Of a stretch of 34,892 nt of DNA, positions 11,471 through 27,926 are shown piece after piece. Position 1 is the stretch's first letter, and each line of letters begins with the position of its first letter. The DNA is taken from IMG/VR virus record IMGVR_UViG_3300033182_001461, positions 1-34,892 of that record; one strand, written 5' to 3'. This stretch comes from a virus. The position numbers and the translations under genes are program-made. The notes below the pieces were generated by a model. The model was not told the DNA's origin, did no database searches, and saw nothing but the letters and a program-made list of their open reading frames with translations.

Positions 11471-12140
11471 AGAAAAAGTATACTACGGAAAGTATTTCGT
11501 AGCAGACAAACCAAGCGACGGATCAAAGTTTAATGATACGCATGCATTGGGCTTTGGTTGGCGACCAGGTCAACCAGAATTTAGCGTTACAATTGATTGT
11601 TGCACAATTGATGGAGGCGGTGCGTCCGAAGGATTGAAATTATCTTTTTGTAGGAATGTAACTGTAAAAAATTCTCAAATCATGGGCGGTACAGAAGATT
11701 GTGTTGATATTGTTCGCGGCGAAAATATCACATTCGAAAATTGTACATTCTTTGCTGGTCCAGATACCAAACAACACATCACCGCAAAAGGTGGAGTAAA
11801 AAATTTAACATTTAAAAATTGTAAATTCATTGGCTCGTTTAAAAATTGGTGGGATGGAGCATGTATCGATCTAGGCAACTGGACAGATTATGATGATGTG
11901 GATCGACCAAAGGTAAGAAATGTACAGATCATAGATTGTGTTATGCAAGATGTATCGTGCCCAATATTATATCGCCGATTATATGCCGAAACTCCCGTGG
12001 TGAAAAACACAAAAGGATTCAAATTTAATGTTCCTCGTTTATTTGTTTCTGCGTTTTGGTTTCTGCAACGCAAGGGATGGATTGGAAAGCGCAGACGCTT
12101 TCCAGAAGATTGGTTGAAGATATACGACTTTGAGCTGTGA
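11460..12140 (+). CDS. Right-handed beta-helix protein
   Basis: 226 aa. Residues 40-165 consist of repeated rungs of the form N-V/I-T-x-x-N/x-C (RNVTVKNSQI, ENITFENCTF, KNLTFKNCKF, RNVQIIDCVM), the pattern of parallel beta-helix proteins such as pectate lyase-like and tailspike folds. The C-terminal 60 residues are basic and aromatic, with possible helices. Such folds in phages usually belong to tailspikes or depolymerases, but this gene is embedded between a DNA-binding protein and a nuclease in the packaging operon, overlapping both neighbours. No catalytic residues can be assigned. Confidence 0.6.
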   Translation: MSSEEKVYYGKYFVADKPSDGSKFNDTHALGFGWRPGQPEFSVTIDCCTIDGGGASEGLKLSFCRNVTVKNSQIMGGTEDCVDIVRGENITFENCTFFAGPDTKQHITAKGGVKNLTFKNCKFIGSFKNWWDGACIDLGNWTDYDDVDRPKVRNVQIIDCVMQDVSCPILYRRLYAETPVVKNTKGFKFNVPRLFVSAFWFLQRKGWIGKRRRFPEDWLKIYDFEL

Positions 12141-13054
12141 ACGCTTGCAAAATATGTGGTGAACAATTTGAAGATGAAAAAAAGCTTCATATGCATTTGC
12201 GCTCACACAAAATAACTCTAGCAGAATATTATACTCAATATCATCCACGGTATAATCTATTAACACAAGAACCATTACCATTTAAAAACAAAGAACATTA
12301 TTTTAGTAAAGATTTTGCGAATCGAAAACAGTTATTAGAATGGTGTGAATCGAATGATGCGGCGACTGTAAAATGGTATATACTCGAGACGCTAAGAAAA
12401 CGTGCTGAATTAAAAGGTTTAACGCTTGGGCCGTGCCACTTTGAATTGCAAGCCAGTGAGCTACCAACAATCGAGCTATTTCAAAAACATTTTGGTTCGT
12501 ATACTCAGGCATGCGAAAAAGTTGGGCTCAAACCGATGTTCAATTCACGACTACCAGATGAGTTTCAAAATGAGGTTGATCCAGACATAAAAATATTTAT
12601 TGACACACGCGAACAACAACCTCTAGAATTTCCATGTTCAGAATCTTTGAAGCTTGACTTTGGAGATTATGCTGTGGGCAGTGAAAATTACGATTATACA
12701 TTTGTTGACCGCAAAAGCGAAACTGATTTTAAATCCACATTGAGCGGCAAAAATTATGAACGTTTTAGAAAAGAATTGCAACGTACAAAAGATATGGATT
12801 GTTATTTGTTCGTTGTAACCGAAACAGATGTATCAACCATGGAGTCGCGCAATCATTGGTCGCCACACACATCCAACATGAAATACATTTATCACAACAT
12901 GCGCGTATTGAGTCACGAATTTGCTGGACATTGTCAATTTATTTTTACTGGTGGTCGCGAACAATCACAGGACATAATTCCAAAAATTTTAACGTTAGGT
13001 AAAAAACTATGGAATGTTGATTTACAATACTACATTGATCACAAATTAATTTAA
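12137..13054 (+). CDS. ERCC4/XPF-type nuclease with zinc-finger and homing-endonuclease-type DNA-binding repeats
   Basis: 305 aa from a GTG start in a GTGA overlap with the previous gene. Residues 4-24 form a C2H2 finger (CKICGEQF, HMHLRSH) followed by LAEYYTQYHP, a combination seen in phage homing endonucleases. Residues about 70-126 (ELPTIELFQKHFGSYTQAC, then VGLKP) resemble the HNH/homing-endonuclease-associated repeat. Residues about 150-240 match the ERCC4 nuclease fold: FIDTREQQPLEF, DFGDYAVG and VDRKSETDF, with the Asp and the D/E-R-K core present. The large terminase gene starts in a TAATG overlap with its stop. It could be a recombination or packaging nuclease, or a free-standing homing enzyme; the domain mixture makes the second attractive. 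Confidence 0.65.
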   Translation: MNACKICGEQFEDEKKLHMHLRSHKITLAEYYTQYHPRYNLLTQEPLPFKNKEHYFSKDFANRKQLLEWCESNDAATVKWYILETLRKRAELKGLTLGPCHFELQASELPTIELFQKHFGSYTQACEKVGLKPMFNSRLPDEFQNEVDPDIKIFIDTREQQPLEFPCSESLKLDFGDYAVGSENYDYTFVDRKSETDFKSTLSGKNYERFRKELQRTKDMDCYLFVVTETDVSTMESRNHWSPHTSNMKYIYHNMRVLSHEFAGHCQFIFTGGREQSQDIIPKILTLGKKLWNVDLQYYIDHKLI

Positions 13055-16000
13055 TGAGCTGGGAAACAGGCAAACAATTATCTCGCAAACAGGGCGAAGA
13101 CTTCAACAAACAATTATCCGAATTAAAAGGATTCATCGAAGAAAAAGATGCAAAAATATTGTTGTATAAATTTTTACGTGAGAATATTACATTTACTGCT
13201 GATTTGATTAGTGGTGTGCAATTGTTTCCGTTTCAACACATGGCTATCAAAGCAATGTTCGAAACAGATTATTTTATGGGTGTTTGGTGTTTAGATGAAA
13301 ATGAATATGTACTCACTGAAACAGGCTACAAAAAAATAAAAGATGTACAAATTGGCGAACGCGTAAGATCGAGAAACAACCTGAATCTTGTATCCGACAA
13401 GAAAACAAATGCTTGTGAATCTGGGCTCAAAATATCACTCAAAAGTGGCGACAGTTTTTCTGCAAAAATTGGACACAAAGTATTAACCTACAATCCCGTT
13501 GACGCGACATTTGAATTCAAAGAAATTCAAGATCTATCAACAAATGATTATCTGCCAATCAAACAAAAAACAGAATGCTGGGGCGATGCGGACATCACAG
13601 ATGGATTTGATATACAAAACACTTCAGGTTTATATTTTGCGCTTGGATACATGATTGGCGATGGATATTTCTGCAAAGATGGAATGCACATATGTACAGA
13701 AAGTCAAGAAGTATTGGATGTATTCGATCGCGTAAAAACACAAAACAATTTAAAATCATATGTTCGTCAAAGACAGGGCGAGTTGTTTGAATATAGTTTT
13801 TTCAATCGTGATATTGTAAAATGGCTTGAGCACATTGGATTTGATCGCTCTAAACGAGCAAAAGATAAAACAATTCCTGATTTATTGTTGCAATCATCGA
13901 GAAACAATGTCGCAGCATTGATTAGTGGAATATTTAGTGCCGATGGATATTGTTCGGTGCTACAAGATGCGCGACACACCGCCGAAAGTTTGTCAATCAA
14001 ATGTGGATTAAAAAATACATCTTTTGAATTGTTGCGTCAGATAAAAATGTTGTTGAATAATTTTGGAATCGAATCGAATCTTCGACATTCTGGTGTTTCT
14101 GATAATGGAACCGATTATTATGATCTTGTGCTTTGCAATGATCAAAACGATCTGCGCGAATTTGCTGATTCAATTGATTTTATACCGCATCACAAAACAA
14201 AAAATTTACATTCTGCAATTGATGCCGCAAAAAAAGAATATCAAACAAAATTGATACCAAAATTTGGCGACATTTTAAAAGCCCAAGGATCGGTAGAAAA
14301 AGTGCGCGGTGTGCGTGGCAATTGGGGCGATTCATATTCACAAAACAGATTAAACAATTTAAATGTTGATAATGCAACACAATCTTTAATTGATGATATA
14401 CAATCTGAGAATGTTGTTTTTTCTAAAATTGATGTTATTGAATCGTGTAAAACTGTTTCGGTTGATATCACAGTAGAAAATGAAGAATGTTATGTTGGCA
14501 ATGGAATTGTTCATCATAATAGTCGGGGTATGAGTAAATCATTTACCACCGCGATATATGCATATCTTGATGCGATACTCAATCAAGGAGTAGAAATTGG
14601 TATTCTGTCTAAATCATTTCGTCAGGCAAAAATGATCTTCAAAAAAATAGAAGATATTGCCAGCAAACCAGGCGCAACATATCTTGCGCAATGTATAACT
14701 CACAAATCAAAAAGCAATGATGAATGGTTGCTCGAAATTGGCCGCAGTCGTATTCGCGCGCTACCACTTGGTGACGGTGAAAAGTTGCGGGGTTTTCGTT
14801 TCCACAGAATCATTATCGACGAGTTTGCGCTGATGCCCGAACGTATTTACAATGAGGTTATTATACCATTCTTGAGTGTTGTGGAAAATCCCACACAGCG
14901 AGAAGAACTACATAATCTTGAAACCACCATGATTGAAAACGGCGAAATGGCCGAAGAAGAAAGATACATTTGGCCAAACAATAAACTTATTGCTCTTAGT
15001 TCTGCTAGTTATAAATTTGAGTATATGTACAAAGCATACGAGCAATTTGAAGACTTGATACGAACAGGAAGCACCAAAGAGAGTGATGCTCATCGAGTGA
15101 TCATGCAATTTAGTTACGACTGCGCGCCCAAACAATTATACGATCAAAATCTTCTTGACCAAGCAAAATCTACAATGAGTCAGAGTCAGTTTGATCGAGA
15201 GTTCGGATCTATATTTACAGATGACAGCAGTGGCTACTTTAAAACATCAAAAATGGCAGCTTGTACATTAAAGGATGGCGAAACTCCGACCATTGAAGTG
15301 GCTGGCGAAAAAGGTGCAAAATATATTCTTGCATTCGACCCAAGTTGGGCAGAAAGTGAGAGTAGTGACGACTTTGCAATGATGGTTCTCAAGCTCAATG
15401 ATGATCGCAAGATTGGAACAGTTGTTCATAGCTATGCATTGAGTGGTGCGAATTTAAAACAACATATACATTATTTTTATTATTTATTAACTCATTTTAA
15501 TATTGTGAGTATTGTTGGCGACTATAATGGAGGCGTACAATTTATCAATGCATGCAATGAAAGTAGTTTGTTTAAAAAGAATAACATCAATATCAAGTGT
15601 CTAAACACAAACTTTGATGATCTAGAACACTATCAAGAAAAATTGGTGGAAGGAAAAAAAGAATACAATCTCGACGACAAAACAATTTGTTATCTGCGAA
15701 AACCTACAAGTGCATGGATACGATTAGCAAATGAATTGTTGCAAGCAAATTTTGATCATCGCCGAATACATTTTGCAGCCCGTGCAATCGATGATGCATA
15801 CAACGAACAGCGCAGCAAAAAGATACCCATCAAGGAGTTGCAATTTCTGAGAACCTCGCAGAGTGGCGAGCGTCAAACAGATGCCGCGAAAATGATCGAC
15901 TTTGTGGAACATCAATTTGATATGATGAATTTAATCAAGACGCAATGTGCGCTGATTCAAATCACAACCTCTGCTGCGGGCACGCAAAATTTTGATCTTC

Positions 16001-16158
16001 CATCAAACCTTAAACGCCAAACTGGACCCGAAAAAGCAAGAAAAGATAGTTATAGTGCACTGGTTCTTGGAAATTGGATGGTAAAATTATATTATGATAT
16101 GATGAATATTCAAGTTGAGAATGTAAATTATACTTTTACTCCCATGTTTATAAAGTAA
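13054..16158 (+). CDS. terL: Terminase large subunit interrupted by an intein
   Basis: The 1034-aa precursor should splice to a 623-aa packaging motor. The intein (residues 79-489) sits at the ATPase P-loop: the joined exteins read GVW-SRGMSKSF, a terminase Walker A motif with Ser in place of the usual Gly before Lys. Walker B is RIIIDEFALMPE (D589, E590). The C-terminal nuclease half has FDPSWAESE (D762), VGDYNGG (D823) and AIDDAYNEQ (D913/D914), the three acidic positions of the RNase H-like headful nuclease. The protein uses ATP to translocate DNA into proheads and cuts the concatemer. It is coupled to the ERCC4-type nuclease gene and is followed by the prohead protease; no portal gene intervenes. 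Confidence 0.9.
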   Translation: MSWETGKQLSRKQGEDFNKQLSELKGFIEEKDAKILLYKFLRENITFTADLISGVQLFPFQHMAIKAMFETDYFMGVWCLDENEYVLTETGYKKIKDVQIGERVRSRNNLNLVSDKKTNACESGLKISLKSGDSFSAKIGHKVLTYNPVDATFEFKEIQDLSTNDYLPIKQKTECWGDADITDGFDIQNTSGLYFALGYMIGDGYFCKDGMHICTESQEVLDVFDRVKTQNNLKSYVRQRQGELFEYSFFNRDIVKWLEHIGFDRSKRAKDKTIPDLLLQSSRNNVAALISGIFSADGYCSVLQDARHTAESLSIKCGLKNTSFELLRQIKMLLNNFGIESNLRHSGVSDNGTDYYDLVLCNDQNDLREFADSIDFIPHHKTKNLHSAIDAAKKEYQTKLIPKFGDILKAQGSVEKVRGVRGNWGDSYSQNRLNNLNVDNATQSLIDDIQSENVVFSKIDVIESCKTVSVDITVENEECYVGNGIVHHNSRGMSKSFTTAIYAYLDAILNQGVEIGILSKSFRQAKMIFKKIEDIASKPGATYLAQCITHKSKSNDEWLLEIGRSRIRALPLGDGEKLRGFRFHRIIIDEFALMPERIYNEVIIPFLSVVENPTQREELHNLETTMIENGEMAEEERYIWPNNKLIALSSASYKFEYMYKAYEQFEDLIRTGSTKESDAHRVIMQFSYDCAPKQLYDQNLLDQAKSTMSQSQFDREFGSIFTDDSSGYFKTSKMAACTLKDGETPTIEVAGEKGAKYILAFDPSWAESESSDDFAMMVLKLNDDRKIGTVVHSYALSGANLKQHIHYFYYLLTHFNIVSIVGDYNGGVQFINACNESSLFKKNNINIKCLNTNFDDLEHYQEKLVEGKKEYNLDDKTICYLRKPTSAWIRLANELLQANFDHRRIHFAARAIDDAYNEQRSKKIPIKELQFLRTSQSGERQTDAAKMIDFVEHQFDMMNLIKTQCALIQITTSAAGTQNFDLPSNLKRQTGPEKARKDSYSALVLGNWMVKLYYDMMNIQVENVNYTFTPMFIK
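13288..14520 (+). mobile_element. Intein with LAGLIDADG homing endonuclease in terL
   Basis: 411 codons, in frame. It begins at Cys79 (CLDENEYVLTETGYKKI, splicing block A) and ends CYVGNGIVHHN before Ser490 (blocks F and G: His-Asn, then the +1 Ser nucleophile). Block B is represented by AKIGHKVLTY. Two dodecapeptide motifs, ALGYMIGDGYF (D203) and LISGIFSADGY (D297), identify a LAGLIDADG endonuclease with both acidic residues kept, so homing is probably still possible. All splicing residues appear intact. Confidence 0.92.
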
Positions 16159-20967: not shown

Positions 20968-21489
20968 ATGAGCGAACTATCCGAAAGCAACTCAAACAAC
21001 ACACCCAACAAGCTAGTAAAATCTCAATTATTTCACGTTTGGAAAAAAGCGCGAGTAATGTACGAGATGGTAAAAGATGATACCAACCTTGAAGATGTTG
21101 TGCGCAAAAATGTTGCCGAAGCATACGAAGCAATTGATCGAGCATTACAATATTTAGAGTACGAAAAAATCTTTCCAAATAAAACAGAAGAAGCAGAGGA
21201 AGATGAAAAAAGCAAAAACAATTATCTTAGCAATCAAGATAAACGTTATCCAACTCCTGCCGCTCAAGAAAGCGGTGATCAATTTATTACTCGTTGTATT
21301 CTTGATGCGAATATGAAAAAGCGTTATCCTGTACAAGGTGATCGTTTTAGTGCTTGTATGTCAATTTACAATTCTAAAAAGGATGATGTTTCCGAGGATC
21401 TTCACAACAATCCCGGAGAAAAATTTGAAGACCCAATGGAAACTAAAGATCCTGAATTGCCAAATCCTGTTAAGCCTCTTCTTCCTTAA
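20968..21489 (+). CDS. Head-module protein with the two-Cys motif
   Basis: 173 aa. Residues 15-70 are helical (VWKKARVMYEMVKDD, VAEAYEAIDRALQYL). Residues about 95-130 carry QFITRCI then DRFSACMSIY, a version of the two-Cys motif of the 49-aa protein at 7676-7825. The last 35 residues are acidic and Pro-rich. It is the last gene of the rightward capsid run and its end overlaps the convergent Clp gene by 20 bp, with no terminator between. Function unknown. Confidence 0.5.
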   Translation: MSELSESNSNNTPNKLVKSQLFHVWKKARVMYEMVKDDTNLEDVVRKNVAEAYEAIDRALQYLEYEKIFPNKTEEAEEDEKSKNNYLSNQDKRYPTPAAQESGDQFITRCILDANMKKRYPVQGDRFSACMSIYNSKKDDVSEDLHNNPGEKFEDPMETKDPELPNPVKPLLP

Positions 21490-23953
21490 TAGTATATTTC
21501 AATTCGTCTTTGCTTACAGAGAACTTTATTGATGTGTTCTCATGTAATGACTTATCAAGTATCAAGCGACTAAGTTCGTTTTCGACGTTCTTTTGAATCA
21601 ATCTTTTGATTGGTCGTGCGCCCATCTTTTCATCGACTGCTTTTTGAGCAAGCCAGCGATATACATTTGATGTTGCACTCATAGAAATTCCTTTGTCTTG
21701 CAGTTTATCTGCGACTTTTTGTATTTCTAGTTTGGTGATCTTTGATAATTCTTCGATGCCAAAGCTATTAAACAATACAATTTCATTGAGACGATTAAGA
21801 AATTCTGGGCGAAAGAAGCTTTTTAGTTCACCCACCAATTTGTCACGTGCAATTGTTTCACTGGTAGCTTGACCAAATCCAATGTTTGGCTTTGCGGCTT
21901 TTTCGCTGCCAATATTACCAGTTAGTATAATTATGCAGTTATTGAAATTGATCTTGCGTCCAGTATTGTCTGTGACCACACCTTCTTCCATGATTTGAAG
22001 AAGAATATTGAGCACTTCTGGATGAGCTTTTTCTACCTCATCAAAAAGAACGACACTGTACGGATTGCGACGCACCTTTTCGGTCAATTCGCCACCTTCT
22101 TCGTATCCTACATATCCTGGCGCGGCACCAATCAATCGAGTCGCGGAAATCTTTTCGCTGTATTCACTCATATCAATTTGAATCAGCGTATTTTTGTTGC
22201 CGTAGATAAATTCTGCAATGCATTTCGCGGTATATGTTTTACCAGTTCCGCTGGCACCAACAAGAAGAAAGCTGCCTACAGGTTTGTTGCTATCTTGTAG
22301 TCCAGATTTTGATCTTAATATAGATTCTGATATTTCTTGTAATGCTTCTTTTTGACCAATTATTCTTTTGTTTAAATTTTTGAATAATCCAAGCATTTTT
22401 TCGCTATCTTTTTTGCTCATATCTTTTACAGGTACTCCTGTTCTGGCAGATAATACTTCATATATATCTTTTTTCTTTACAGATATTTTGTTTTTCATTG
22501 TATTCTTTGCCCATTCGGATATGATTTGGTCATATTTTTCGAGAAGATCGAGTTGTTCGTCTTCTATGTGTTCGTAGTCGTAACCAACCGATTGTAGTTT
22601 AGCTTCTTTTAGCGCTAATTGTTCGAGCTGATGCTCGATATCTTTGGCAGCTTGTGGTCGTTCAATGTTTTTTATCTTCACTTTCGAGCCAGCCTGATCC
22701 ATGATATCGATCGCTTTGTCTGGAAATTGTTTGTCGAGAATATATTTAGATGCCAATTCAACAATCAAATCTAGCACTTCGCTAGGATAAGATATACTGT
22801 GAAAACTTTCATATTTATCTTTCACCCCTTCAAGAATTTGACGAGTTTCTTCTTTGTTTGGCTCGATAACTTTGACTGCTTGAAAGCGTCGATCAAGCGC
22901 GCCATCTTTTAAAATACTTTTCTTGTATTCGGTTTGTGTTGTAGCACCTATACATTTGAGCTCTCCGCGGGCTAGAAGCGGCTTTAATAGGTTGGCCGCA
23001 TCCATGGCTCCTTCGGCTGCTCCAGCGCCCACAAGCGTGTGTATTTCGTCGATAAACAATATAATGTCCGGATTCTTTTTTGCTTCTTCGATTATACCCT
23101 TGAGACGTTCTTCAAATTGACCGCGATATTTTGTGCCTGCAATCAATGATCCAAGATCGAGAGAATAAATTACTTTGTTCAACAAAAAGTCAGAACATGT
23201 ACCCTTGACAATCTTTTGCGCTAATCCTTCAACGATTGCAGTTTTTCCCACACCTGGTTCACCAAGCAACACAGGATTGTTTTTTGTGCGACGACAAAGA
23301 ATTTCTGATGCATCATATATTTCACTTTCTTTTCCTATGATGTTGTCAAATTTTCCTTGTTTTGCTAGCGCATTTAAATTGGTTGCGAATTTTTCTAGAT
23401 TTTGTAGTTTTGTTTCCTTGGGTGGACTTGCTTTTGTTTTGTTGATGAATTTTATTCTATCTTCTTTTGGTGGTTTTGTATCTTTTGATAGATGTAGATA
23501 CTCGCGCACTTCGGTGATGATATCTTCTTCGGTTGCATTGAACTGCACGAAAAAGCTAGGAATACTAGAGTTTTCATATTTTAATAGTGCCAGCAATATG
23601 TGTTCTATGCCAACATATTCGTGCCCCAGCTTGTCGCTGATGCTCGCGGCAACTTTTAATATAAGATGAAAGTGTTCATCATACTCTGGCTGAAAATTCT
23701 CTGGAACAAATGATTCTATTCCATCATCGGATATTTCATAAAATGTACGTTCAATTTCGTCTTTTAGTAGTTCTTGATCGATTTGCAGTAAAAATAATAT
23801 TTCGCTAAGAATACCTGCGTTCAAGTTAACCATGCCATAAAATAAATGCTCTATGGTTACGTATTCATTTCCGAATTTTGTAGCAACTCGTTTCGCTTCA
23901 CTGATCGCTTGTTGCGCGCGCGGCGTAAAGTTAGGTTTTGGTATCATCTTCAT
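21470..23953 (-). CDS. ClpC/ClpA-like AAA+ unfoldase
   Basis: 827 aa with the full HSP100 layout. There is a double Clp-N domain (about 8-155) and AAA1 with Walker A GEPGVGKT (231-238) and Walker B ILFIDE (298-303). A short middle coil (about 435-485) is followed by AAA2 with GASGTGKT (566-573), VVLFDE (634-639), and the sensor-2 GAR (778-780). An IGF tripeptide (691-693) lies where ClpA, ClpC and ClpX carry the loop that docks on ClpP; ClpB lacks it. The short middle domain also points to ClpC rather than ClpB. It probably feeds proteins to host ClpP or remodels complexes. It follows the polymerase gene on the same strand, 16 nt downstream. Confidence 0.85.
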   Translation of the reverse strand: MKMIPKPNFTPRAQQAISEAKRVATKFGNEYVTIEHLFYGMVNLNAGILSEILFLLQIDQELLKDEIERTFYEISDDGIESFVPENFQPEYDEHFHLILKVAASISDKLGHEYVGIEHILLALLKYENSSIPSFFVQFNATEEDIITEVREYLHLSKDTKPPKEDRIKFINKTKASPPKETKLQNLEKFATNLNALAKQGKFDNIIGKESEIYDASEILCRRTKNNPVLLGEPGVGKTAIVEGLAQKIVKGTCSDFLLNKVIYSLDLGSLIAGTKYRGQFEERLKGIIEEAKKNPDIILFIDEIHTLVGAGAAEGAMDAANLLKPLLARGELKCIGATTQTEYKKSILKDGALDRRFQAVKVIEPNKEETRQILEGVKDKYESFHSISYPSEVLDLIVELASKYILDKQFPDKAIDIMDQAGSKVKIKNIERPQAAKDIEHQLEQLALKEAKLQSVGYDYEHIEDEQLDLLEKYDQIISEWAKNTMKNKISVKKKDIYEVLSARTGVPVKDMSKKDSEKMLGLFKNLNKRIIGQKEALQEISESILRSKSGLQDSNKPVGSFLLVGASGTGKTYTAKCIAEFIYGNKNTLIQIDMSEYSEKISATRLIGAAPGYVGYEEGGELTEKVRRNPYSVVLFDEVEKAHPEVLNILLQIMEEGVVTDNTGRKINFNNCIIILTGNIGSEKAAKPNIGFGQATSETIARDKLVGELKSFFRPEFLNRLNEIVLFNSFGIEELSKITKLEIQKVADKLQDKGISMSATSNVYRWLAQKAVDEKMGARPIKRLIQKNVENELSRLILDKSLHENTSIKFSVSKDELKYTIKEEEA

Positions 23954-23969
23954 TGATTTACACGCTATT

Positions 23970-26528
23970 TTACTTAACGTCTGACATTTTCATGTAGATC
24001 TTTTCGTCCATTATATTGATTGAATCGAGAAAAACGATGTCTTCACTTTTTCTTCCATATGCTACTATTATACTCTTTTTTACAGGAGTTTTCTTGTTTG
24101 CTTCGAAGTATCTATCATAATAATTTCCTCTTCTAGAATTAAGAAGCATTGCATCATATCTTCCATACTCATCTGCGATGCTTAATTTCATATATTTGTT
24201 GCCGTTTCGAGATGTTCTTTTAATACAATCTTCCACAACACCAATGAATTTTCCCTTATCGTCGGCTTGCATCACATGCAAATCGCGAGAATCACAAAGC
24301 GATTGATACGAATCAACAAAACATTCTTTTAAATTACAACTGTGACTATATCCAAGTAATTCAGTTTCAAAATACCAATTCGCAAAGCTTTCGTATTCTT
24401 TATTTTTATCATAAATTGATTTATAAACATCATATTTTTTCTTGAATGTTTTGAAGCGTGATTCTTTCATCAATGGTTTTCCATCATCTCCTACCAATTC
24501 ACCCTTTTTCGCATCAGCTATACAATTGAGTAGTTTGTATTCGTATTTATCGCCCAAGAGTATGAAGTTACGTTTCTCGCGATCGGTCAATAGATTGAAT
24601 GCTTGTGCCTCAAGAACCATAAGCGAGCGATTGCTTCCCTTACTTTCGAGTGCGCCAGCTTGAATCAATGCGCTCAAAACACCAATATTTAGTCCTGCTT
24701 GCTTTGCGGCAAGAAAGATGTCGTACTTTGTTGGCGTTTCGCTGGAACGAAAATCTTGTAGGGATTGTAGAGATTTCTCACTTACTCCTTTGATGCTGTT
24801 TAATCCAAAACGTATATTGTTTCCTTCGATTGCAAAGTCCATCTTTGATTTTGCTAGGTCTGGACAAAGTAATTTTATACCAAAATGCGATAATTCTTTA
24901 GTAATTTTACTTATTTCTTCTTGTGGAGCAGGTTCATATTTCGTCATCTTCAACAAAGATAGAAAAAATTGTTGTGGATGATTAAATTTTAGATATGTTG
25001 TCCATGCGGCAAGAACGGAATAGCTAAGAGAGTGTGATTTATTGAATGAATAGTTTGCACTATCTTCTGCAACACTCCATAGTATGGTTCCAATATCTGG
25101 ACTCAATCCTCGCTCGCTCACCTTTTCTTCGATTTTGGCTTTCCAAGCAGGCATTTGATCCACCTTTTTCTTGCCCACAATGCGCCGAAGCTGTTCCGCT
25201 TCATCGAGCGTAAATCCAACCTTCACTGCCATTTGCATGAGCTGCTCTTGATACAGCGGAATTCCTCCTGTATAATCCAATACATCCGAGAAAAATTCGT
25301 GAATCACCTGAGCTTCTTCGGTTTCTACATAAGTTGCATAATTGTCCAAAAATTCGAGAGCTCCTGGACGACCAATCGCTACAACTGCACTAAGCTGCTC
25401 GAGGCTCTGTGGCTTGATTTTTTTGCACACTCTGTAGTTAGTATCGGATTCCAATTGAAACAGTCCGTGGGGCGCTCGTAGAGCCTGTAATGGCTTGAAT
25501 ACATCTGTGTTGTGCAGATCAATTTCATTACAGTCAATTCCAAGACTTTTGCATACATCATAAATCACACTCAAGGTGCGCAATCCTAGAATATCAAACT
25601 TAACCATCAGCTCGGACACCCAATTCATATCGTATCCTGTGACGAGTGCGCCATCATTCGATGTTTGAACAGGACAAATGTCAGTCATCGTATCAAACGA
25701 AATCGCAATTCCACTTGGATGAACGCCTGTATTCTTGTTTAAACCTTCGAGTTTAAGTGCGATATTAAATACTTCTGCGTTTTGCGCAGCCCAATCAGTA
25801 AACTTTTCGCTTTCTTCGATAGCATTTCTAAGAGGAACAACCACTCCAAAGCGTTTTGGAATTGTGTCACTCACTTCGTTCACTTGTTGTTCGGTAAATT
25901 CACCAACAATCTTACCACATTCCTTGACACAAAGCTTACCACTGAGAGTATTTAATGTTAAAATCTTTGCGGTTCGGGCGGGATGCTTACGTTCGATGTA
26001 GTCGATAACTTCTGCGCGTCGTTCGTAAGCAATATCGTTGTCCACATCTGCCAGTAAACTACCATCAAGATAAGTGATTCCATCTTGTTCAATTTTACGA
26101 GCTCTGCTCTTTGATACGAATCGCTCAAAGAATAGGTTATATTCTACAGGATCAACATTTGTTACTCCAATCAAATAGAGCACAAGCGATCCTGCGGCAC
26201 TACCACGACCTGGCCCAGTAGGAATATCATTTTCGTGACAGAAATTAAGAATATCCCAGTTTAATAAAATATAATCAATAAAACCAAGCTCCTCAAGAAT
26301 CTTTAATTCTGATTTTGCGCGATCAAAGTATTCCTTCTTGTTGTCAAATTTATCGATTCCGCGGTCGTAGACACCCTTGTGGCACAGTTTGCGAAGGAAC
26401 TCATAGTTGCTCACGTCTGGCGAGCACTCGAGCATTTTATAATACTTGTCTTCGATTTTAATATTAGGCAATCGAACGCCCGGAGGAACACATCCCTCGT
26501 AATTTGTAAATTGTTCAATAAAGCTCAT
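23970..26528 (-). CDS. dnaE: DNA polymerase III alpha, catalytic part (split DnaE)
   Basis: 852 aa from the ATG at 26528, which overlaps the exonuclease stop in ATGA (an alternative ATG lies at 26543). It lacks the PHP domain, which is a separate gene upstream. It has the palm motif GPGRGSAAGS (106-114), the catalytic Asp cluster ADVDNDI (D161, D163, D165) and KFDILGLRTL (D312), corresponding to E. coli D401/D403 and D555. The fingers and helix-hairpin-helix region follow, then an OB fold (KFIGVVEDCIKRTSRNGNKY, about 755-800). The usual C-terminal tau-binding domain is very short or absent. It would assemble with the PHP polypeptide and the exonuclease as the phage replicase. Confidence 0.9.
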   Translation of the reverse strand: MSFIEQFTNYEGCVPPGVRLPNIKIEDKYYKMLECSPDVSNYEFLRKLCHKGVYDRGIDKFDNKKEYFDRAKSELKILEELGFIDYILLNWDILNFCHENDIPTGPGRGSAAGSLVLYLIGVTNVDPVEYNLFFERFVSKSRARKIEQDGITYLDGSLLADVDNDIAYERRAEVIDYIERKHPARTAKILTLNTLSGKLCVKECGKIVGEFTEQQVNEVSDTIPKRFGVVVPLRNAIEESEKFTDWAAQNAEVFNIALKLEGLNKNTGVHPSGIAISFDTMTDICPVQTSNDGALVTGYDMNWVSELMVKFDILGLRTLSVIYDVCKSLGIDCNEIDLHNTDVFKPLQALRAPHGLFQLESDTNYRVCKKIKPQSLEQLSAVVAIGRPGALEFLDNYATYVETEEAQVIHEFFSDVLDYTGGIPLYQEQLMQMAVKVGFTLDEAEQLRRIVGKKKVDQMPAWKAKIEEKVSERGLSPDIGTILWSVAEDSANYSFNKSHSLSYSVLAAWTTYLKFNHPQQFFLSLLKMTKYEPAPQEEISKITKELSHFGIKLLCPDLAKSKMDFAIEGNNIRFGLNSIKGVSEKSLQSLQDFRSSETPTKYDIFLAAKQAGLNIGVLSALIQAGALESKGSNRSLMVLEAQAFNLLTDREKRNFILLGDKYEYKLLNCIADAKKGELVGDDGKPLMKESRFKTFKKKYDVYKSIYDKNKEYESFANWYFETELLGYSHSCNLKECFVDSYQSLCDSRDLHVMQADDKGKFIGVVEDCIKRTSRNGNKYMKLSIADEYGRYDAMLLNSRRGNYYDRYFEANKKTPVKKSIIVAYGRKSEDIVFLDSINIMDEKIYMKMSDVK

Positions 26529-27169
26529 ACTTCTACTTCCCATATCATTTTCTTGAATACTTCATAATTGACTCGAATGTCATACAATGCATCATGCAAT
26601 TTTTTCTCGTCAAAGTCAACATCAAAATCTTTACAGCATTGTTTTAAATTGCAGCTTAATCCTCGTTCGATGAGATGATTGAGTCGATATTGCCACGCCA
26701 AAAAGTTATCATCTTTGTCTAAACGAATGCGTTTCTTGAGAGCTTTTGCAAGACACAATGTGTCCACAAGATGCTCGGTATAACTGTAATCTGTTTCTGC
26801 TTTTGAATCAACAAGTTTTCGATGAATGTTGTGCATATAAACATCAAAGCCTAGCAGATTGTGCCCAACTTTGAGGTAGCTGTCGTCGTACAGATATTTT
26901 TCGAAGTGTTCAAGCGCTGCTTTTGGGCAACTCGCGCGCTTTTTATACTTTGCTTCAGTAAATCCTGTGATCTTTGCGGCATCAGGAGATACATTCAGAT
27001 CGTCCCATTTGAGCCAATAATCTTGCTGTTCTACGATCTTGTTGTTTTCGATAACAAGAAATGCAAGCTGCCATGGTTTGTTGTGCGTGATAAGATTAAG
27101 ATTACAAGTTTCGTAATCGAACAACAGATACTTTTTGTTTTTTTGAAATCTAAGCAGTGATTCTTTCAT
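26525..27169 (-). CDS. dnaQ: DnaQ-like 3'-5' proofreading exonuclease
   Basis: 214 aa from ATG 27169, which has a ribosome binding site (AAGGAG) 5 nt upstream; an earlier ATG at 27202 lies within the preceding gene and is less likely. All DEDDh motifs are present: LLFDYET (D18, E20), VGHNLLGFDVY (H103, D109) and LHDALYDIR (H192, D197). The enzyme removes mispaired 3' ends, as the epsilon subunit does for Pol III. It lies between the two halves of the polymerase gene, overlapping the PHP gene by 20 nt and the polymerase gene by 4 nt, so all three are made together. Confidence 0.85.
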   Translation of the reverse strand: MKESLLRFQKNKKYLLFDYETCNLNLITHNKPWQLAFLVIENNKIVEQQDYWLKWDDLNVSPDAAKITGFTEAKYKKRASCPKAALEHFEKYLYDDSYLKVGHNLLGFDVYMHNIHRKLVDSKAETDYSYTEHLVDTLCLAKALKKRIRLDKDDNFLAWQYRLNHLIERGLSCNLKQCCKDFDVDFDEKKLHDALYDIRVNYEVFKKMIWEVEV

Positions 27170-27926
27170 TTTTCTCCTTCCAGCTTTGGAAACAAAATTC
27201 ATTACTTCCGAAGTGATCTAAGTTTGGTTTTGATAATGTTTTGCCGCCGCCGAAGCTACGACTTGTTACGCATTTGTATGTTTGAAATGCAGCTACATCT
27301 TGTTTGTTTTTATAATATATACTTTTTGTTGTTTCGATTTTGTATTTTTTATTTTGTGCATATTCTTTTACTCGACCTGCAAGAAAATGATCGAATGGTA
27401 GCGAATTGTTTTCGATAAAGAAAGTTGGATCGCAGAATTTGAAGCTGGGCGTACAGTTTGAGAACTTCATTAAATTGTTGTATATAAAGCTGTCATAAAA
27501 CGGAATTGCTAATAATAGATTATCTTTGTTCCAATGTTTCTTGAGCATCTTTTCGTCAACGCAGTTGTAATTTTCTGTGAATGCTTCACTATAAATGTTG
27601 TTGAGAATCTTACAACCCTCAGAATTTTTCGCAAAAATGATAATTTTATGCGCAGAACTCATAGTTTCGCTTTTTGGATCGATACTTGCATCTTCTCGCA
27701 TGTTTATGCGAAGTCCGAAAATCAATTTTAGATTCAATTTCTCGGCGTTTTTCTTGGCCTGTAAAAATCCCGTCAGAGAATCCTCGACGAGTACAACTTC
27801 TTTTAGATTATTTTCTACAGCAATGCTAAAAATACTATCTGATCCACCTTCTTTATGTGTACTAGGATCATCCAGCGTCAATATGCTTTTGCCGATTGAG
27901 TAATGACTTTTGAATAAAGGTAACAT
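27150..27926 (-). CDS. PHP domain of DNA polymerase III alpha as a separate protein
   Basis: 258 aa from the ATG at 27926 (alternative at 27932). It aligns by pattern with the N-terminal PHP domain of DnaE: FKSHYSIGKSIL for the first PHP motif, VLVEDSLTGF where active domains have LTDHGN, then LKLIFGLRINM. The end (GGGKTLSKPNLDHFGSNEF, FQSW) corresponds to the KTLDDP and FYFKS border of the domain. Several metal-binding His and Asp are missing, so it is probably structural, which fits a replicase with a separate exonuclease. The start is chosen because the -10 box of a strong promoter ends 7 nt before this ATG. Confidence 0.75.
   Translation of the reverse strand: MLPLFKSHYSIGKSILTLDDPSTHKEGGSDSIFSIAVENNLKEVVLVEDSLTGFLQAKKNAEKLNLKLIFGLRINMREDASIDPKSETMSSAHKIIIFAKNSEGCKILNNIYSEAFTENYNCVDEKMLKKHWNKDNLLLAIPFYDSFIYNNLMKFSNCTPSFKFCDPTFFIENNSLPFDHFLAGRVKEYAQNKKYKIETTKSIYYKNKQDVAAFQTYKCVTSRSFGGGKTLSKPNLDHFGSNEFCFQSWKEKNERITA

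What the first reader, a model, noticed from the sequence alone, without database searches (positions are those of the whole stretch)
23970..27926. Split DNA polymerase III alpha with the proofreading exonuclease encoded between its halves
The PHP domain (258 aa) and the catalytic part (852 aa) are separate genes, with a complete DEDDh exonuclease between them, all overlapping by 4-20 nt. The break falls at the natural PHP/palm border, with no intein remnants. The gene order is PHP, exonuclease, polymerase, and the product has a much reduced tau-binding end. It may be a minimal three-subunit replicase assembled from cotranslated parts.
Basis: partly seen in the sequence, partly recalled or inferred. 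Interest (0 to 1): 0.75.

Follow-up and report, generated by a model that had tools for sequence, protein, structure and literature searches.

The report
Phage replicase split into three genes
A large group of uncultivated bacterial viruses encodes its DNA-copying enzyme as three separate genes (a non-catalytic PHP scaffold, a proofreading exonuclease and the polymerase core), where described bacteria keep scaffold and polymerase in one protein; the split is old, stable and under selection, but assembly into one enzyme is inferred rather than shown.

Summary
PHP (258 aa), DEDDh exonuclease (214 aa) and DnaE polymerase core (852 aa) are separate intact genes on the minus strand at 23970-27926, overlapping by 20 and 4 nt. 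It is not an error: none of 137 distinct related loci has PHP fused to the polymerase, and all 128 that hold the three genes keep the order PHP-exo-pol. A polymerase tree is consistent with one origin (support 100/100). All three genes are under purifying selection (median dN/dS 0.10, 0.05, 0.05). PHP models confidently (pLDDT 90) and matches DnaE PHP domains over its whole length (Z 23), but its metal ligands are lost. Exonuclease and polymerase catalytic residues are invariant. The polymerase ends after the OB fold and is the only one found in 14 large contigs. Most likely this is a three-polypeptide Pol III core, with PHP as a detached structural subunit and proofreading by the exonuclease. 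The tight cassette is not conserved: in 96 of 135 relatives other genes lie between the three. Split phage dnaE genes were known at other positions; this split site with the exonuclease between is a new variant. Complex formation is untested.

The parts
27150..27926 (-). PHP subunit, 258 aa: a DnaE PHP domain as its own gene; metal ligands lost
26525..27169 (-). DEDDh (DnaQ/epsilon-like) 3'-5' exonuclease, 214 aa; D18, E20, D109, H192, D197 invariant in 39 homologues; no long C-terminal tail
23970..26528 (-). DnaE catalytic core, 852 aa: palm, thumb, fingers, HhH, OB fold; D161, D163 and D312 invariant in 37 homologues; no PHP, no C-terminal tau-binding domain
27150..27169 (-). 20-nt PHP/exo overlap, AAGGAG just upstream of the exo ATG
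26525..26528 (-). 4-nt exo/pol overlap (ATGA)
21470..23953 (-). ClpA/ClpC-type AAA+ ATPase directly downstream of pol on the same strand; a neighbour, role in replication not shown
   Evidence: a homologue also follows pol in the 211-kb relative

Best explanation
This is a single-origin fission of a phage DnaE at the loop between PHP and palm, fixed in a large lineage of uncultivated tailed phages. The three products most likely act as one Pol III core made of three polypeptides. The 852-aa protein synthesises DNA. The 258-aa PHP protein has lost its nuclease site and works as a separate structural subunit that packs on the palm and may help place the exonuclease. The 214-aa DEDDh enzyme proofreads. 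Shown here: the gene structure, homology and co-linearity, conservation of the split, purifying selection, intact exo and pol active sites, degenerate PHP site, one C-family polymerase per large contig. Inferred: that PHP binds pol in trans, that exo binds PHP or pol, and that the set is the phage replicase.
For: Genes and overlaps. Three separate genes in constant order: (128 of 128; none fused among 137), including loci fetched with the polymerase alone, so the finding is not an artefact of searching with PHP. At least 263 matched stretches of viral contigs encode this PHP. Split forms are one side of a 100/100 branch against fused phage and bacterial DnaEs. Median dN/dS: PHP 0.096, exo 0.054, pol 0.054. 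PHP model pLDDT 90.5, pTM 0.88; Z 22-23 to Taq, M. tuberculosis and E. coli DnaE PHP domains over residues 1-258. PHP ligand positions replaced by K, R, K, S, Y in most of 39 homologues; exo DEDDh and pol aspartates invariant. One DnaE and no family A polymerase in each of 14 contigs of 107-211 kb. Literature: PHP is nearly universal in C-family polymerases (PMC3919608), loss of its metal site goes with a separate exonuclease, and it stabilises E. coli Pol III (PMC3666897).
Against: No complex was modelled or measured. The exonuclease ends 17 residues after its last catalytic aspartate, so the C-terminal tail by which E. coli epsilon binds PHP is absent. Other genes often separate the three, so co-translation is not required. 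PHP evolves somewhat faster than the other two. The correlation of protein distances (r 0.91-0.95) reflects vertical inheritance and does not prove contact.
Confidence: 0.72

Rival explanations
1. PHP has been freed from the polymerase and now has another job (for instance a scaffold for other phage or host proteins); exo and pol form the replicase without it.
For: PHP folds alone, is the fastest-evolving of the three, and is often separated from exo and pol by unrelated genes.
Against: The polymerase lacks any other PHP, and no other C-family polymerase was found in 14 large contigs; the order PHP-exo-pol holds in every complete locus. PHP is nearly universal in cellular C-family polymerases and structurally integrated in E. 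coli Pol III (PMC3919608, PMC3666897).
Confidence: 0.17
2. The phage polymerase no longer needs a PHP protein for activity; PHP and exo form a separate proofreading pair that acts on the primer in trans.
For: PHP precedes exo in every complete locus; PHP is the epsilon-binding site in E. coli (PMC3919608, PMC3666897).
Against: No C-terminal tail on exo; exo-pol adjacency is kept as often as PHP-exo adjacency.
Confidence: 0.08
3. Sequencing error, frameshift or local decay of a normal dnaE.
For: None found.
Against: The same split in 128 distinct loci with all three genes, purifying selection, overlapping start and stop signals of several kinds, and whole genes inserted at the junctions.
Confidence: 0.01
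4. The parts are rejoined: programmed frameshifting or trans-splicing gives one polypeptide.
For: Short overlaps in the window; split-intein DnaE exists in cyanobacteria (noted in PMC3919608); an intein does occur in this phage's terminase gene.
Against: No intein residues at the PHP end or pol start; complete genes lie between the parts in 96 of 135 relatives; a frameshift from PHP would enter the exonuclease, not pol.
Confidence: 0.02

Closest known systems
E. coli Pol III core (alpha-epsilon; DnaE1 + DnaQ)
   Same: DnaE core, degenerate PHP, proofreading by a DEDDh enzyme from another gene
   Different: PHP is covalently part of alpha; alpha has the C-terminal tau-binding domain; epsilon has a PHP-binding tail
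PolC (Firmicutes)
   Same: PHP, DEDDh exonuclease and polymerase together; the window's exonuclease is closest among solved structures to a PolC exonuclease domain (2p1j)
   Different: One chain, exonuclease inserted inside PHP, OB fold N-terminal (PMC3919608); the window's polymerase is DnaE-type by profile
Bacteroidetes DnaE1 with fused exonuclease (PMC3919608)
   Same: DEDDh exonuclease tied to DnaE, in the phylum that is the best lead for the host
   Different: Exonuclease is attached to the N-terminus of PHP and all is one chain
Split dnaE of Cellulophaga phages phi13:1 and phiST (Cbastvirus)
   Same: Phage DnaE in two adjacent genes, phages of Flavobacteriia
   Different: Cut inside the palm, just before the catalytic aspartates (525 + 673 aa); PHP stays with part of the palm; no exonuclease between
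dnaE of Bacillus phages G and KLEB27-3
   Same: Phage DnaE in pieces
   Different: Cut elsewhere, with a homing or HNH endonuclease gene between the pieces
Pbunavirus (Pseudomonas phage JG024) epsilon-alpha gene pair
   Same: Exonuclease gene directly upstream of the polymerase gene, 1-nt overlap
   Different: Alpha is a single 1035-aa gene

Membership tests
C-family DNA polymerase, DnaE type (polymerase core) | Significant match to DnaE palm, thumb, fingers and HhH | tested here: met
   Pfam 2e-61; profile vs E. coli DnaE 313-899, E 7e-108
C-family DNA polymerase, DnaE type (polymerase core) | Three catalytic aspartates | tested here: met
   D161, D163, D312 invariant in 37 homologues; aligned with Taq DnaE
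C-family DNA polymerase, DnaE type (polymerase core) | PHP domain in the same chain | tested here: not met
   PHP is a separate gene in the window and all relatives examined
C-family DNA polymerase, DnaE type (polymerase core) | OB fold after HhH | tested here: met
   model strands 758-839; weak second alignment to Taq 1037-1084
C-family DNA polymerase, DnaE type (polymerase core) | C-terminal tau-binding domain (typical of DnaE1, lacking in DnaE2 and some others) | tested here: not met
   chain ends after the OB fold
PHP domain of DnaE | PHP fold as in DnaE | tested here: met
   Z 23.1, 240 residues, 2.7 A rmsd
PHP domain of DnaE | Metal-binding active site (HHDHEH[C/H]DH) | tested here: not met
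   ligand columns replaced in most of 39 homologues; positions assigned by sequence alignment
DEDDh exonuclease | D, E, D, H, D catalytic residues | tested here: met
   D18, E20, D109, H192, D197 invariant in 39
bona fide epsilon subunit (definition of PMC3666897) | C-terminal tail that binds alpha | tested here: not met
   protein ends 17 residues after D197
Pol III core complex | Stable alpha-epsilon association | not testable with these tools
   needs complex prediction or co-purification
Split-intein DnaE | Intein halves at the break | tested here: not met
   PHP aligns to PHP domains to its last residue; no intein match in PHP or pol

The most novel reading that the evidence does not exclude
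A replicative polymerase in which PHP has become an obligate, exchangeable subunit, and in which the opened operon takes up accessory genes (SET-domain protein, GMP-reductase-like enzyme, cupins, small conserved ORFs) whose products work with the replisome.
Probability: 0.12. Interest if true: 0.8.

Novelty: new variant of a known kind. Interest (0 to 1): 0.55.

Why it matters
PHP is nearly universal in bacterial replicative polymerases, yet in many its nuclease site is dead and its role is still debated. Here it has been detached by evolution and kept under selection as its own catalytically dead protein, so its structural role can be tested by adding or leaving out a natural subunit. It also suggests that a replicative DnaE core can be cut at this boundary and keep working over deep divergence (polymerase identity down to 34%).

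Tried and rejected
Blastn of the locus and tblastn of PHP against 50,697 phage records found nothing, so no cultivated member is known in that collection. Literature searches for a PHP encoded apart from DnaE found no such report; subscription journals are mostly not held. A conserved clamp-binding motif was looked for with a simple pattern: present in only 8 of 136 polymerases and 10 of 136 exonucleases, not conserved; beta-clamp families gave no match in 14 contigs, but these may be fragments and a divergent clamp could be missed. Shine-Dalgarno-like sites precede 7 of 26 window genes, so the one before exo is not by itself proof of separate initiation. An attempt to reach outgroups with the divergent L122 polymerase returned only itself. 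Correlated distances of the three proteins were computed but not used as evidence of contact.

Full report
Observation. On the minus strand the window holds three adjacent intact genes: PHP 27926-27150 (258 aa), DEDDh exonuclease 27169-26525 (214 aa) and a DnaE-type polymerase core 26528-23970 (852 aa). PHP and exo overlap by 20 nt, exo and pol by 4 nt (ATGA). Family searches agree: PHP (Pfam 3e-7; PHROG DNA polymerase 6e-14), RNase_T exonuclease (2e-13), DNA_pol3_alpha (2e-61) with fingers and HhH. On a single NCBIfam DnaE model PHP covers positions 12-250 and pol 283-1039 of 1146, so together they restore a DnaE that lacks only its C-terminal end.

Not an artefact. Searches of viral contigs with the polymerase, PHP and exonuclease, with a divergent PHP alignment and of bacterial genomes gave many relatives; 263 matched stretches of viral contigs encode a relative of this PHP. 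Among 137 distinct loci none has PHP fused to pol; 128 hold all three genes, always in the order PHP, exo, pol; the other nine show only PHP, or PHP and exo, and where checked the contig ends there. The loci fetched with the polymerase alone show the same, so the result does not come from searching with PHP. Two relatives sit in contigs binned as Flavobacteriaceae and Flavobacteriales (L170, L171), a weak hint of the host.

Origin. In a maximum-likelihood tree of the polymerase, 11 representatives of the split family lie on one side of a 100/100 branch from 13 fused phage and bacterial DnaEs, so one origin suffices. Cultivated phages examined have PHP fused or are split elsewhere: Cellulophaga phages phi13:1 and phiST inside the palm before the catalytic aspartates, Bacillus phages G and KLEB27-3 with an endonuclease gene between the pieces, Alicyclobacillus phage KKP_3916 in several pieces. 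Splitting of phage dnaE is therefore a known kind of event; the PHP/palm site with the exonuclease between is the new variant.

Function of the parts. Median dN/dS between close relatives is 0.096 for PHP, 0.054 for exo and 0.054 for pol, so all three are maintained. The PHP model is confident (pLDDT 90.5, pTM 0.88) and matches PHP domains of E. coli, Taq and M. tuberculosis DnaE over residues 1-258 with Z 22-23. Alignment with fused DnaE N-termini puts K, R, K, S and Y at ligand positions; PHP should be catalytically dead in the whole family. Exo keeps D18, E20, D109, H192, D197 in all 39, and pol keeps D161, D163, D312 in all 37. The polymerase model (pLDDT 87) matches DnaE structures and ends after the OB fold; the tau-binding domain is missing. 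Bacterial surveys report PHP in nearly all C-family polymerases and OB-terminated variants as a minority (PMC3919608), and loss of PHP metal sites together with a separate exonuclease (PMC3666897). The exonuclease lacks the C-terminal tail with which epsilon binds PHP in E. coli, so its mode of attachment is open.

Setting. Fourteen related contigs of 107-211 kb each have one DnaE and no family A polymerase; 13 have a DnaB-like helicase; one was read in detail and has UvsX/RecA-like, DnaB-like and DnaG-like genes upstream. No beta clamp was found, and no clamp-binding motif is conserved. The contigs may be incomplete.

The tight overlapping cassette is not a family trait. Of 135 distinct relatives only 39 have both junctions compact; in 96 a whole gene's length lies at one or both junctions. 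Inserts include SET-domain, IMPDH/GMP-reductase-like, cupin/JmjC-like and HNH proteins and small conserved ORFs. A relative with 97% identical polymerase (L002) carries the SET gene where the window has a 20-nt overlap, so such genes come and go quickly. Co-translation cannot be essential for assembly, and the parts are truly separate genes; this also speaks against frameshift fusion.

Conclusion. The best reading is a three-polypeptide Pol III core with PHP as a detached, non-enzymatic subunit (confidence 0.72). Assembly is inferred from family knowledge and conservation; it was not tested.

Noticed in passing
window 13054-16158 (+): The terminase large-subunit gene (1034 aa) carries an intein with a LAGLIDADG endonuclease, roughly residues 100-490, ahead of a T4-like terminase domain.
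   Followed up: partly
L002 6872-7378 and other relatives (L003, L004, L010, L013, L018, L021, L024-L026, L042, L095, L153): A SET-domain protein gene sits between PHP and exo in many relatives, including one with 97% identical polymerase, and is absent from that junction in the window.
   Followed up: partly
L034 6398-7372, L039, L046, L047, L049, L055, L069, L100, L105: An IMP dehydrogenase/GMP reductase-like gene between PHP and exo.
   Followed up: partly
L066 6448-6963: An HNH endonuclease gene between PHP and exo, a possible relic of how such junctions open.
   Followed up: partly
L037, L038, L047, L049, L064, L162 (56-58 aa); L060, L064, L157 (63-82 aa); L075-L081, L118 (71-74 aa): Three sets of small conserved ORFs of unknown function between PHP and exo or between exo and pol; three tested gave no Pfam match above cut-off.
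   Followed up: partly
window 21470-23953 (-); L262 2711-3448 and 8029-10557: A Clp-type AAA+ ATPase directly downstream of the polymerase; a relative also has a ClpP-like protease just upstream of PHP.
   Followed up: partly
window 12137-13054 (+): Protein just upstream of the terminase gene with weak zinc-finger, homing-endonuclease-repeat and ERCC4 matches, all below Pfam cut-offs.
   Followed up: no
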